Positions 6,624 through 32,521 of a stretch of 64,000 nucleotides of DNA are shown piece after piece. Origin of the DNA: an uncultured Fodinibius sp. (GTDB lineage: Bacteria > Bacteroidota > Rhodothermia > Balneolales > Balneolaceae). Location of the stretch: the NCBI GenBank assembly GCA_913056455.1, contig CAJXMJ010000001.1:992001-1056000 (forward strand). Direction: 5' to 3'. A model generated the notes under the pieces. The model did not search any database. It saw only the letters and a list, made by a program, of their open reading frames with translations, and was not told the origin of the DNA. Numbering within the stretch: the first letter of the stretch is position 1; each line of letters opens with the position of its first letter. Made by a program: the position numbers and the translations under genes.

Positions 6624-7121
6624 ATGAACTCTGACATTTCCGGTACCCAAAAACATCTCCGATTTATGCAGCAGGCCTTTTTTCTGGCTGAACAGGCTTA
6701 TGAAGAAAAGGAAGTACCGGTTGGAGCTGTAGTAGTTAAAAATGACCATATTATTGGAAAGGGATACAATCAGACGGAACGATTAAACGATCCCACCGCC
6801 CATGCAGAGATGCTCGCAATCTCAGCGGCTTGCTCTACGCTTGGACAAAAATATCTTCAGGAATGTACGCTTTACGTGACTCTTGAACCCTGTCCTATGT
6901 GTGCAGGAGCTCTTGTCTGGTCCAAAATTGATCAAGTGGTAATTGGTGCCCTTGATGCTAAAGCAGGAAGCTGTGGGAGTGTTTACAACCTCGCATCAAG
7001 TGATAAGTTAAACCACCAAGTTGATGTAATGCATGGATTTATGGAGGACGACTGTGAGTGGATTCTAAAGCAGTTTTTCCAGGAACGTCGGTCGAAAGGA
7101 AATGGTCAACCTGACTTATGA
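6624..7121 (+). CDS. tadA: tRNA-specific adenosine deaminase
   Basis: A 165-residue cytidine/deoxycytidylate deaminase-fold enzyme that changes A34 to inosine in tRNA-Arg(ACG). The zinc site is visible: H60 and catalytic E62 in the TAHAEM segment, and C90/C93 in EPCPMC. PVGAVVV and the C-terminal GSVYNL block are typical of TadA rather than guanine deaminase. It is divergent from apt and its last 6 bp overlap the 3' end of the converging integrase-like gene. Confidence 0.94.
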   Translation: MNSDISGTQKHLRFMQQAFFLAEQAYEEKEVPVGAVVVKNDHIIGKGYNQTERLNDPTAHAEMLAISAACSTLGQKYLQECTLYVTLEPCPMCAGALVWSKIDQVVIGALDAKAGSCGSVYNLASSDKLNHQVDVMHGFMEDDCEWILKQFFQERRSKGNGQPDL

Positions 7122-7469
7122 CGCTGAAACCTGTTGTTTCCTATTGTGACCTCCCCACCGACAAATATAAAGAGGCTCTCCTTGTATAACACCCTTTAAC
7201 GACGGCAGTGGTTCTCTAATGATATAGCGATACAAAAATTCTATTGCTTGCCGGGCCTGGCTTTGAATAGAATCCGGAACCTCTCGAACTGTAACAAGAT
7301 AGTTTAAAAACCCTACCACTTCCTCTTCTCCCATATTCTTCGGATGCTCTAATTTATGATAGTAAATAAACCGGGTAATCCATCCGATATACGTTTGCTC
7401 GATGCGATAGCTCATTCCCTGTCTCCTTATCTCTGTACGAATCTTGCTAAGCAGTACCGATCTACCCAT
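7116..7469 (-). CDS. stand-alone integrase N-terminal SAM-like (core-binding) domain protein
   Basis: 117 residues matching only the arm/core-binding domain of integron-type tyrosine recombinases: the sequence pattern YRIEQTYIGWITRFIYYH, then HPKNMGEEEVVGFLNYL, then QARQAIEFLYR. The protein stops shortly after the interdomain linker (LPSLKGV), so the catalytic domain with the R-H-R-Y residues is absent. A strong Shine-Dalgarno (AAGGAGGG, about 7 nt before the ATG) argues that it is expressed and not a decayed fragment. Relatives annotated only by this domain occur in other genomes. A DNA-binding or recombinase-modulating role is an inference. Its end overlaps tadA by 6 bp. Confidence 0.75.
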   Translation of the reverse strand: MGRSVLLSKIRTEIRRQGMSYRIEQTYIGWITRFIYYHKLEHPKNMGEEEVVGFLNYLVTVREVPDSIQSQARQAIEFLYRYIIREPLPSLKGVIQGEPLYICRWGGHNRKQQVSAS

Positions 7470-7656
7470 ACTCTTCCCTCCTTTGTGTTGGCTTTATAAG
7501 TAAGACCGCAGAGAAGTCTGATCCTTACAATTTTTTTGGTCACGTATAGAACCAAAGCTGACTATATAGGCTTTTCGGAACACAATTTATTTACCTATAA
7601 TTGGACTGATCAATATAAATGACCAACAACTCTCATAGTTAAGTAATTCTTTTGTT

Positions 7657-30034: not shown

Positions 30035-30655
30035 TTATTGATAATATGCGACTGCTAACCAGTTATTTTCCATTCGGAAACTACAAATTTTAGCTCTTTT
30101 GTCATTATTTATTTTAGCAAATATCTGGTCTGATTCTCGCCTTATTTGTACCTCATTCATATTCATGCGCAATCCTTGTCCCCGGAGCTTTATATAGGCC
30201 TCCTTGATAGTCCACAAGCGAATCAACGGTATATCACTGACAACATTGCTTTCTTTGGGATGAGAAATGCGCTGCTTGAGTCTGTCAGGGACTGTTCGGT
30301 CAGCTGGTTCCAAATCAACTCCGATGGGAGAATTTGGTGATAATCCGCAAAGTACGAAATCATCCGTATGGGCAATACTGATAAAAAACTTTTGTGTATC
30401 TGTTTTTCCGAAAGGCTGTCCGAGATCATCCTTAAGAACTTCAAACTTATGTTCATCCCCGGCCAGCTCCTTCAAAATAATGCGAGAAGTCACAAACTCT
30501 CGCTGTCGTTTGAGACTTTTGCACGTCTCAAGTTCCCTTTTTTCTTCAGTGCTCAGCTTATTTATTGCTTCCGAATAAACCGAACCAATCTCCGACAGAG
30601 AAAATACAGCCTCAAACGGTAACAACTCCTGAATTGCTGAAAATGGATTACTCAT
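30035..30655 (-). CDS. 4'-phosphopantetheinyl transferase (Sfp-type)
   Basis: 206 residues. Transfers phosphopantetheine from CoA to a carrier-protein serine. The magnesium motif IGVDLE (D114, E116) and the WTIKEAYIKLRGQGL block (148-162) are the two family hallmarks; SIAHTDDFVLC precedes them. No NRPS or PKS gene is near, so the partner may be the fatty-acid ACP or a distant cluster. First gene of the minus-strand run that continues to the thioredoxin gene. The structured element at 30837-30932 lies 180 bp upstream. Confidence 0.9.
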   Translation of the reverse strand: MSNPFSAIQELLPFEAVFSLSEIGSVYSEAINKLSTEEKRELETCKSLKRQREFVTSRIILKELAGDEHKFEVLKDDLGQPFGKTDTQKFFISIAHTDDFVLCGLSPNSPIGVDLEPADRTVPDRLKQRISHPKESNVVSDIPLIRLWTIKEAYIKLRGQGLRMNMNEVQIRRESDQIFAKINNDKRAKICSFRMENNWLAVAYYQ

Positions 30656-30836
30656 TACATTCTATTATTCAATCTAAAACAACTGAAAATCTTTAATTTT
30701 ATACTCTTCTGAAACTATTAATGTCCTAAAACCAAAAGAAATGCTATGTATTTTTATCGAGTTCTCTCTAACTCATACTAACTACAATAGACACTAAGGA
30801 TAGATTATCATCCCATCAAGAGAATTTTGAGCGCAT

Positions 30837-30932
30837 AAAAAATGCCGGGTCCTTAGTCAGGAACCCGGCACTGTTCTTTACCTGCTTCTCACAGGACAAC
30901 CCCTTGACCTGTTTATACCAGAAGAAGCAGGT
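30837..30932 (-). ncRNA. candidate small RNA or leader: two stem-loops ending in a T6 terminator
   Basis: On the minus strand, a first domain is closed by a 10-bp perfect stem (30923-30932 with 30880-30889) and contains an inner hairpin ACAGG/CCTGT plus CAA/TTG around a GGGG loop. Ten bases later a second hairpin (TGCCGGG...CCCGGCA, 30870-30843) carries a one-base bulge and is followed by six T (30842-30837). No gene ends just upstream of it, so it is not simply a gene terminator. It could be a free small RNA or a regulated leader of the PPTase gene. No known Rfam family recognised. Confidence 0.5.
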
Positions 30933-31140
30933 ACTTTTAAATAATGATCATTTTATTATCCTTGTTTTAAAGTAAGACCTACAATCGGACCATTCCTTAC
31001 AGTTTATTATAATTTTAATTTTTCATTCACTGTTTTAAGTAATATGATGAGTACAAATAGCGTCCAATTGATTAATTCTTAAGTTTCTGAAACCTACCAG
31101 ATGAAATTAATTTATCCTTCGATCACCTATTCTTATGGGT

Positions 31141-31172
31141 TCTATTTCTAAATCAGGGTATTTAGAAATAGA
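31141..31172. repeat. perfect 13-bp inverted repeat with 6-nt spacer
   Basis: TCTATTTCTAAAT (31141-31153) and ATTTAGAAATAGA (31160-31172) are exact reverse complements around CAGGGT. A T6 run (31181-31186 area) comes 9 nt later on the plus strand. It could be an operator, a terminator, or part of an RNA. It lies in a gene-free stretch 139 bp beyond the stop of the 80-residue gene. Confidence 0.7.
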
Positions 31173-31310
31173 TTCGTTGCCTTTTTTACTATAAAATATT
31201 GAAGTGGAATTAATCTAACAGAATACTAAAAACAACACTACCCTCTCATGCCTAGAGCATGAATTAGAAATAAAGGGTTTGCCTAACAAAACTTACATCC
31301 CCGAACTTAT

Positions 31311-31553
31311 CTATTTTGTAGAGTGCATAAGACCCTGCAACAAATCCTGGTAAGACTCTATATCTTTATTTTTTTGTTGCGTTTTAAGCTTTATTGAGCC
31401 ATTGAGAACCAACTCGCATTGTTGCCCCTTATAATTGAATTCAAGGATTTCTAATTCATTTGGGGCATCGTAATACGGCTCACTAACATCTGTAACGAAA
31501 AAGACCTCATATTTTAACTGCTGTGCCAACGAATGAAATAAACGCTTATTCAT
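31311..31553 (-). CDS. small hypothetical protein, 80 residues
   Basis: An 80-residue soluble protein of no known family, beginning MNKRLFHSLAQQLKYEVFFV. It has an N-terminal helix, a few strands (LEILEFNYKGQQCELVLNG) and a charged C-terminal helix. The Shine-Dalgarno GGGAG 6 nt upstream of the ATG supports real translation. It is isolated in the gene-poor stretch. Function unknown. Confidence 0.6.
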   Translation of the reverse strand: MNKRLFHSLAQQLKYEVFFVTDVSEPYYDAPNELEILEFNYKGQQCELVLNGSIKLKTQQKNKDIESYQDLLQGLMHSTK

Positions 31554-31974
31554 AACTACTCCCGTTTTTTTAACTCTCTGCTTCGTTCTCTTTTAGATAA
31601 AACCCTATGTCATCATCTCTGGATTAACAACTTTAATAATAAGCGAACAAAATCCCAATTTTTAAAGAGATTTTAATACAGTTTATTAAATTGTAATCCA
31701 AGCCTTATCAAATTGCGGCATATTTCTATTACTTACCTGCTTTAAAAGTCGCATGAAGAATTAAGAAGAGAGAACTATAAGTCAAGAATTAAAACAAAAT
31801 TTGAGTAGCCCCCTACAACTCGGGGTGTTAGAGACCATCTTCTGATATTTTAATTCCCATTCAGGATTGAAGCTACTTCTATACTGTTTTGCATTGCTTA
31901 GATGTAAATAGTAGTATCTGATATGTTGATTAAAAGTTTAAACCAAATACTATAAAATCAGAGAGCAATTTATT
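31554..31974. other. 421-bp divergent non-coding stretch
   Basis: Between two divergent small genes. A/T-rich, without ORFs. One possible closed RNA structure at 31803-31878 is the only pattern I can point to. Promoters for both small genes should lie here, but no clear TAnnTTTG copy was found. Confidence 0.5.
31803..31878 (+). ncRNA. possible structured leader closed by a 7-bp stem
   Basis: GAGTAGC (31803-31809) pairs with GCTACTT (31872-31878, one G-U), enclosing a CCCC/GGGG hairpin and short internal stems. It lies about 100 bp before the glycine-rich small gene. Evidence is pairing only; no known riboswitch core was seen. Confidence 0.25.
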
Positions 31975-32193
31975 ATGTCTGAACAACAAAAGGAATCAAG
32001 AACCAACGGCAAATCATATATAGGTATTGGAATTGCTATAGGTGTGGGAGTCAGTTCTGCTGTTGGGGTTGCCATTTATAATTTGGCAATGGGAATTGGG
32101 ATCGGGGTTGCCATGGGAACGGCTTTAGGAGCAGGATTGGGGACACCAAAAAACAATCATAATGGCAACATCGATACACAGAAGTCTAAATAA
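31975..32193 (+). CDS. small glycine-rich hydrophobic protein (glycine-zipper-like)
   Basis: 72 residues: a hydrophilic start, then about 45 residues of repeated G-I-G-I/A-x motifs from residue 17 to 60 (YIGIGIAIGVGV, AMGIGIGVAMG, LGAGLG), and a polar tail. This glycine-zipper pattern would let two short helices pack in a membrane. Similar tiny proteins occur in many Bacteroidota-type genomes with no assigned function. Its isolation between structured non-coding stretches is notable. Confidence 0.7.
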   Translation: MSEQQKESRTNGKSYIGIGIAIGVGVSSAVGVAIYNLAMGIGIGVAMGTALGAGLGTPKNNHNGNIDTQKSK

Positions 32194-32521
32194 ACTATTA
32201 TTTTAAGATGATATCCCTTATTTCAACTCCGTGTTAATGCTGTTGAAATACTATATATCACCCAACAATCGAATAAGGACACTTCCTACTTTTTGGGAGT
32301 AATAGGGATAACTTCTGCAGAAATTTTTACTTCAAAAAATCTCTGCCTACTTAAAATTTATTGTCACCTTTTAAGCAATATCCCAAGGATCACACCTGCC
32401 ATCTCAATCCAAATTAAAACAACTAATTACGATTAAGAAAAAAATCACACTTTTGTCATGAATTCTTTATTTTTAGCGACTTAATAAATCATAGTACAAA
32501 CGAAACAAATACGACTTTCTC
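32194..32521. other. 328-bp non-coding stretch before lysS
   Basis: No ORF. An extended inverted-repeat region occupies 32212-32310, and A/T-rich DNA with the lysS promoter should fill the rest. No confident promoter match. Confidence 0.5.
32212..32310 (+). repeat. nested inverted repeats
   Basis: Outer arms TATCCCT (32212-32218) and AGGGATA (32304-32310). Inside, TATTTCAAC (32219-32227) and GTTGAAATA (32242-32250) form a perfect 9-bp stem with a 14-nt loop, and a weak TACT/AGTA hairpin lies near 32286-32301. Could be the 3' end of the small gene's transcript or an independent RNA. Confidence 0.4.

What the first reader, a model, noticed from the sequence alone, without database searches (positions are those of the whole stretch)
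30837..30932. Candidate small RNA with two stable hairpins and a T6 end
On the minus strand a 10-bp-closed domain with an inner GGGG-loop hairpin is followed by a GC-rich terminator hairpin and six T. No gene stops just upstream, and the nearest downstream gene (PPTase) is 180 bp away. This is how free-standing small RNAs and regulated leaders look. It resembles no RNA family I know (6S, SRP, TPP, THF and fluoride cores were considered).
Basis: seen in the sequence. Interest (0 to 1): 0.6.

Follow-up and report, generated by a model that had tools for sequence, protein, structure and literature searches.

The report
Competence-regulon small RNA, ORF-less unit
In a salt-loving Balneolota bacterium, a short structured RNA with no gene inside it sits behind the same switch-like promoter that controls the cell's DNA-uptake and DNA-recombination genes, so it is probably a small RNA made when those genes are turned on, although its own job is unproven.

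Summary
The hairpin pair and T6 end are real (z = -5.9 to -6.7; no Rfam match). This motif occurs 3-29 times per genome in the genus Fodinibius (pattern read backwards: 0). It lies 3 nt after the stop of an ECF sigma-factor gene, before a putative anti-sigma gene, in several genomes. It precedes recA, radC, recN, comM, comEA, comEC, comF, ssb, an integron integrase and several ORF-less short transcripts. So the window feature is most likely a ~128-nt RNA of an ECF-sigma competence/recombination regulon. The same promoter block and the same 3' composite hairpin plus terminator enclose a HU/DUF4469 gene in two related species, at unrelated positions. The window copy has both ends but lacks the ~1 kb interior. 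In the composite hairpin 7 of 18 pairs show compensatory change among the three sequences. Transcription, sigma dependence and function are inferred; a transcribed relic of a lost HU unit is the main rival. The regulon with its non-coding arm is the more interesting discovery; I found no report of it in the papers searched.

The parts
30971..31001 (-). ECF-type promoter TGTAAGGAAT-N15-CTTACT (-35 TGTAAGGAAT, -10 GGTCTTACT), preceded by AATAAAC shared with G002/G003
   Evidence: PWM score 33.8 vs max 0.5 in five shuffled 64-kb windows scanned on one strand
30837..30965 (-). predicted transcript, ~128 nt (start inferred 5-8 nt after the -10 element)
   Evidence: inference from the promoter and the T run; no RNA data
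30934..30970 (-). A/U-rich 5' tail; holds a 4-codon AUG AUC AUU AUU UAA after AAGGA, possibly chance
   Evidence: sequence
30879..30933 (-). composite hairpin: outer stem, 9-nt 5' bulge CTGGTATAA, inner GGGG-loop hairpin
   Evidence: conserved with compensatory changes in G002 and G003
30837..30872 (-). intrinsic terminator with T6, conserved in G002/G003 (89-91% identity)
30035..30655 (-). downstream gene, 4'-phosphopantetheinyl transferase; probably a separate unit with its own conserved 5' block

Best explanation
Window 30965-30837 (minus) is a ~128-nt ORF-less RNA transcribed from a promoter of the ECF sigma factor that controls DNA-uptake and recombination genes in Fodinibius/Balneolaceae, and ended by its own intrinsic terminator. 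By descent it is a short version of the HU/DUF4469 transcription unit of this regulon: promoter and 3' composite hairpin are kept, the HU gene and its leader are absent. Most likely mechanism: when the anti-sigma releases the sigma factor, the RNA accumulates with recA, comEA, comM and the rest; its two hairpins protect it from exonucleases, and it acts in trans through its unpaired 5' tail, bulge or GGGG loop, as sigma-E-dependent sRNAs do elsewhere. Shown here by computation: promoter, regulon membership, structure, homology. Inferred: sigma dependence, transcription and RNA stability. Speculative: base-pairing targets.
For: Promoter: TGTAAGGAWT-N15-CTTACT has 3-29 sites per genome in 12 Fodinibius genomes, 0 for the pattern read backwards, and is present in 12 of 21 genera of the family sampled. 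It lies 3 nt after the stop of an ECF sigma gene (TIGR02937, 57 bits, cut-off 42.9), before a TM/TPR putative anti-sigma gene, in G000, G002, G003, G004, G005 and G007, and close by in G060 and G068. Targets among 127 sites: recA 8, radC 8, comM 10, comEA 7, recN 6, integron integrase 6, HU/DUF4469 12, plus comEC, comF, ssb, with ruvB downstream of the anti-sigma gene. Other ORF-less transcripts follow the same promoter. The window site scores 33.8, inside the range of known sites and far above shuffles. Structure: z -5.9/-6.7. Homology: both ends match the HU units of G002/G003; R1 scores 105.6, 105.3 and 89.1 bits, against at most 38 bits elsewhere in 92 genomes. 7 pairs with two-sided change, 0 of 500 shuffles.
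Against: No RNA data. The element is in 3 of 12 genus genomes, and only the window copy lacks the gene, so conservation as a free RNA is not shown. Three sequences are few for covariation. Target search with the unpaired segments gave nothing above background. Sigma-promoter pairing rests on adjacency, not on a binding test. The sigma protein falls just below the Pfam region-2 cut-off (20.5 vs 24 bits) though above the NCBIfam ECF cut-off. The anti-sigma call rests on position, a TM segment and a weak match to one anti-sigma model (21.8 bits, cut-off 200).
Confidence: 0.55

Rival explanations
1. A transcribed relic: a HU/DUF4469 unit that lost its gene. The RNA is made but does nothing; the hairpins are inherited 3'-UTR structure that once protected the HU mRNA.
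For: Both ends are homologous to HU units in G002 and G003 while the interior is missing. G000 has no HU/DUF4469 gene at all. The locus lies in a variable intergenic stretch absent at this place in relatives. No target found.
Against: The outer stem is perfect and longer than in the relatives, although the hairpin sequence has diverged widely. The promoter consensus and the terminator are intact. Other ORF-less transcripts of the regulon are strongly conserved, so ORF-less output is normal for it.
Confidence: 0.33
2. A 5' leader or attenuator of the PPTase gene (perhaps through the small Ile-codon leader peptide) that controls read-through at the terminator.
For: PPTase is the next gene on the strand, 181 nt away; a 4-codon Met-Ile-Ile-Ile ORF precedes the hairpins.
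Against: The two hairpins do not overlap, so no obvious antiterminator exists. Relatives keep the 5' block of PPTase without this RNA. The terminator is strong, and the promoter belongs to DNA-uptake genes.
Confidence: 0.07
3. The motif at 31001-30971 is an operator of a repressor (SOS-like) rather than an ECF promoter; the RNA is then a DNA-damage RNA under a housekeeping promoter. (This rival concerns the promoter reading and overlaps with the RNA readings above.)
For: The motif is an imperfect inverted repeat GTAAG..CTTAC, and a variant class changes both halves together (GTAAC..CTTGT). Targets include recA, recN and ruvB.
Against: Nearly invariant spacing, A/T-rich stretch upstream, start codons as close as 5 nt after the motif, and fixed adjacency to an ECF sigma/anti-sigma pair.
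Confidence: 0.12

Closest known systems
ECF sigma-E-dependent sRNAs (RybB/MicA of E. coli, from general knowledge; FoxI/FoxJ of Fusobacterium nucleatum, PMC11005410)
   Same: Short ORF-less RNA from an ECF-type promoter, intrinsic terminator, part of a sigma-factor regulon with a coding and a non-coding arm
   Different: The regulon is DNA uptake and recombination, not envelope stress; no sequence similarity claimed; promoter motif TGTAAGGAWT/GGTCTTACT; targets unknown; origin from a HU/DUF4469 unit
Pneumococcal csRNAs and competence-linked sRNAs (e.g. PMC7196914)
   Same: Small RNAs tied to competence
   Different: Those belong to Gram-positive competence control; here an ECF sigma promoter in Balneolota; no sequence relation tested
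3'-UTR-derived sRNAs (general knowledge)
   Same: The relatives' homologue is the structured 3' UTR and terminator of an mRNA
   Different: Here the coding part is gone and the 3' end sits directly behind the promoter

Membership tests
ECF-sigma-dependent sRNA | promoter of a defined ECF regulon immediately upstream | tested here: met
   motif, spacing, sigma adjacency and PWM score; that this sigma reads the motif is inferred
ECF-sigma-dependent sRNA | loss of expression without the sigma factor | not testable with these tools
   needs RNA from a sigma deletion strain
ECF-sigma-dependent sRNA | no ORF, own Rho-independent terminator | tested here: met
   only a 4-codon AUG ORF is present
ECF-sigma-dependent sRNA | trans base-pairing with target mRNAs | tested here: inconclusive
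Any Rfam family (6S, SRP, riboswitches and others) | covariance-model match at gathering score | tested here: not met
HU/DUF4469 transcription unit | homologous promoter block and 3' hairpin/terminator | tested here: met
HU/DUF4469 transcription unit | HU-DNA_bdg + DUF4469 coding sequence | tested here: not met
   none in the window locus or in the whole assembly
cis-regulatory leader of PPTase | kept upstream of PPTase orthologues | tested here: not met
   12 of 12 genus genomes have the PPTase; only the window carries the element, and no strong R1 hit lies near any other PPTase

The most novel reading that the evidence does not exclude
Balneolaceae run natural competence and recombination (including an integron integrase) from one ECF sigma/anti-sigma pair with a non-coding arm: several families of small RNAs, some conserved across the genus and some, like this one, born by loss of the HU/DUF4469 gene between a regulon promoter and a structured 3' UTR.
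Probability: 0.4. Interest if true: 0.78.

Novelty: new variant of a known kind. Interest (0 to 1): 0.58.

Why it matters
Control of natural competence and recombination is little known in this phylum. The motif gives a genome-wide handle on a regulon that joins DNA uptake, recombination and integron integration under one ECF sigma factor, with ORF-less RNAs in it. The window RNA also shows a possible route by which a small RNA can arise: a promoter and a structured 3' UTR joined after loss of the gene. All of it is testable in cultured Fodinibius strains.

Tried and rejected
Rfam on the window, on the locus at E up to 10, on relatives and on the other ORF-less transcripts: nothing. A resemblance to the SRP RNA core, noted by eye, was not borne out by cmscan. 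Wider search with the covariance model in 92 family genomes: only the three known copies score high; the weak genus hits that I inspected are ordinary terminators. Exact-terminator scan of GTDB contigs: only Fodinibius salipaludis. Syntenic conservation: none; relatives have other sequence between lysS and PPTase. Residual 3'-UTR homology in the 5' tail: not above shuffles. Target prediction: no signal. Palindrome arrays as found behind HU genes: absent at the window locus. Literature: no report of an ECF-controlled competence regulon in Balneolota found in the held library; that library lacks most subscription journals.

Full report
WHAT IS THERE. On the minus strand of 30837-30934 two hairpins stand in a row. 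The first is a composite: an outer stem (ACCTGCTTCT/AGAAGCAGGT, 12 pairs in the fold), a 9-nt bulge on the 5' side only (CTGGTATAA), and an inner hairpin with a GGGG loop. The second is a terminator ending in T6. The fold is far more stable than shuffles (z -5.9 for 126 nt; z -6.7 for 98 nt). Rfam has no match.

THE PROMOTER. A BLAST of the 261-nt region against relatives gave two short matches in each of two species of the genus, both in the same order as in the window but about 1 kb apart. One match is the terminator. The other is the stretch 31008-30971, AATAAACTGTAAGGAATGG..GGTCTTACT. The pattern TGTAAGGAWT-N(8-20)-CTTACT was then searched in 12 genomes of the genus: 3-29 sites per genome, almost all with a 15-nt spacer, and none for the pattern read backwards. 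In a broader sample of the family, 34 of 58 genomes and 12 of 21 genera have it. Aligned sites show an A/T-rich stretch just upstream, the invariant TGTAAGGAWT, and GGTCTTACTWA. A PWM built without the window site gives it 33.8; five shuffled 64-kb windows, scanned on one strand, reach at most 0.5.

THE REGULON. Among 127 distinct sites in the genus the genes behind the motif are recA, radC, recN, comM (YifB), comEA-like, comEC, comF, ssb, an integron integrase (TIGR02249, 433.8 bits, cut-off 265), GIY-YIG and PD-(D/E)XK nucleases, LTD proteins, HU/DUF4469 proteins, and a putative anti-sigma gene followed by ruvB. Directly before that anti-sigma gene lies an ECF sigma gene (TIGR02937 above cut-off; Pfam region 2 just below cut-off). 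The promoter starts 3 nt after the sigma stop codon in G000, G002, G003, G004, G005 and G007, and close to it in G060 and G068 (coordinates). Autoregulation of a sigma/anti-sigma pair is a hallmark of ECF systems (established knowledge), so this sigma factor is the likely reader of the motif. That step is inferred. The word competence here rests on the gene content; no transformation assay of these organisms was found.

ORF-LESS MEMBERS. Several sites have no gene but a terminator soon after the promoter. One family, '..AAGCCGTTGAAATAGAGAGCAATATCAAATGTCCTTCCGGGG..', is nearly invariant at eight loci from eight genomes, with changing but still paired terminator stems. Another precedes recN. A third is seen in L102, L111 and L118. 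None matches Rfam. The window RNA is thus one of several ORF-less transcripts of this regulon.

ORIGIN OF THE WINDOW COPY. In G003 (Fodinibius salipaludis) and G002 the same left block (AATAAACTGTAAGGAWTG..GGTCTTACT..AAAC) and the same right end (composite hairpin, TGCCGGGTTC..GGACCCGGCATTTTTTATG) enclose a ~250-nt leader and a gene for a HU-DNA_bdg + DUF4469 protein. The neighbouring genes differ in the three genomes, so the unit has moved or been transferred. HU/DUF4469 genes are multi-copy in some Fodinibius and absent from the window's genome. Aligning the three 3' ends gives the same architecture: outer stem, a long bulge on the 5' side, inner hairpin, terminator. 7 of 31 pairs change on both sides and stay paired, all of them in the 18 pairs of the composite hairpin; no shuffle of 500 reaches this and sliding the structure abolishes most of it. 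With three sequences this is good but not overwhelming. The covariance model finds no further strong copy in 92 family genomes.

HOW IT PROBABLY WORKS. Shown: promoter, regulon, structure, homology. Inferred: an RNA of about 128 nt is made with the DNA-uptake genes and is protected by its two hairpins. Speculative: it regulates mRNAs by base pairing. The pairing test on regulon and window genes gave nothing. ECF-dependent sRNAs as the non-coding arm of a sigma response are known from Proteobacteria and from Fusobacterium (FoxI, FoxJ; PMC11005410). The main rival is a transcribed relic of a lost HU gene; I cannot exclude it, because the window is the only gene-less copy available.

NOT A PPTase LEADER. 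The relatives' sequence before PPTase matches the window only from about 30720-30750 downward; the region above it, with this RNA, is absent there. No antiterminator is apparent.

VERDICT. A real and well-structured element with a clear place in a regulon for which I found no earlier report in the held library. As an sRNA it is a new variant of a known kind. The regulon and its conserved ORF-less transcripts deserve more attention than this single member.

Noticed in passing
window 7499-7529 (-) and ORF 7116-7469 (-): Second promoter of the same regulon (PWM 37.5) before a 117-aa ORF whose orthologues in G003/G008 sit behind the same promoter and cluster with full-length integron integrases; the ORF corresponds only to the N-terminal part, so it is a truncated or stand-alone domain.
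   Followed up: partly
L109, L119, L137, L182, L185, L194, L213, L230 directly after the promoter: Strongly conserved ORF-less RNA (AAGCCGTTGAAATAGAGAGCAATATCAAATGTCCTTCC plus a terminator with changing but paired stem) ahead of LTD-protein genes; no Rfam match. Probably a better sRNA candidate than the window one.
   Followed up: partly
L079, L082, L106, L136, L190, L202 upstream of recN: Conserved short transcript with terminator between the ECF promoter and recN (CTGTTCATTAAG..CTCCCG..CGGGGGCC T-run): attenuator or sRNA.
   Followed up: no
L054:2286-2423, L062:1318-1432, also L046, L047, L052, L056, L058, L060, L063: Behind many HU/DUF4469 genes lie arrays of short palindromes, spaced exactly 23 nt in the two loci measured, with a different palindrome sequence at each locus. 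Possible locus-specific binding arrays of the HU protein.
   Followed up: partly
L051, L053, L054, L058 upstream of the HU gene: Variant promoter GTAACAAATC..CTCTTGTATAG in which both halves change together; perhaps read by a second sigma paralogue (two ECF homologues in most genomes).
   Followed up: no
window 31141-31172: Perfect 13-nt inverted repeat (TCTATTTCTAAAT/ATTTAGAAATAGA, 6-nt loop) upstream of the promoter, unexplained.
   Followed up: no
window 30720-32432: About 1.7 kb between lysS and PPTase that several relatives lack; holds an 80-aa ORF (31311-31553, -) found at this place only in G008 among those compared, without a Pfam match.
   Followed up: partly
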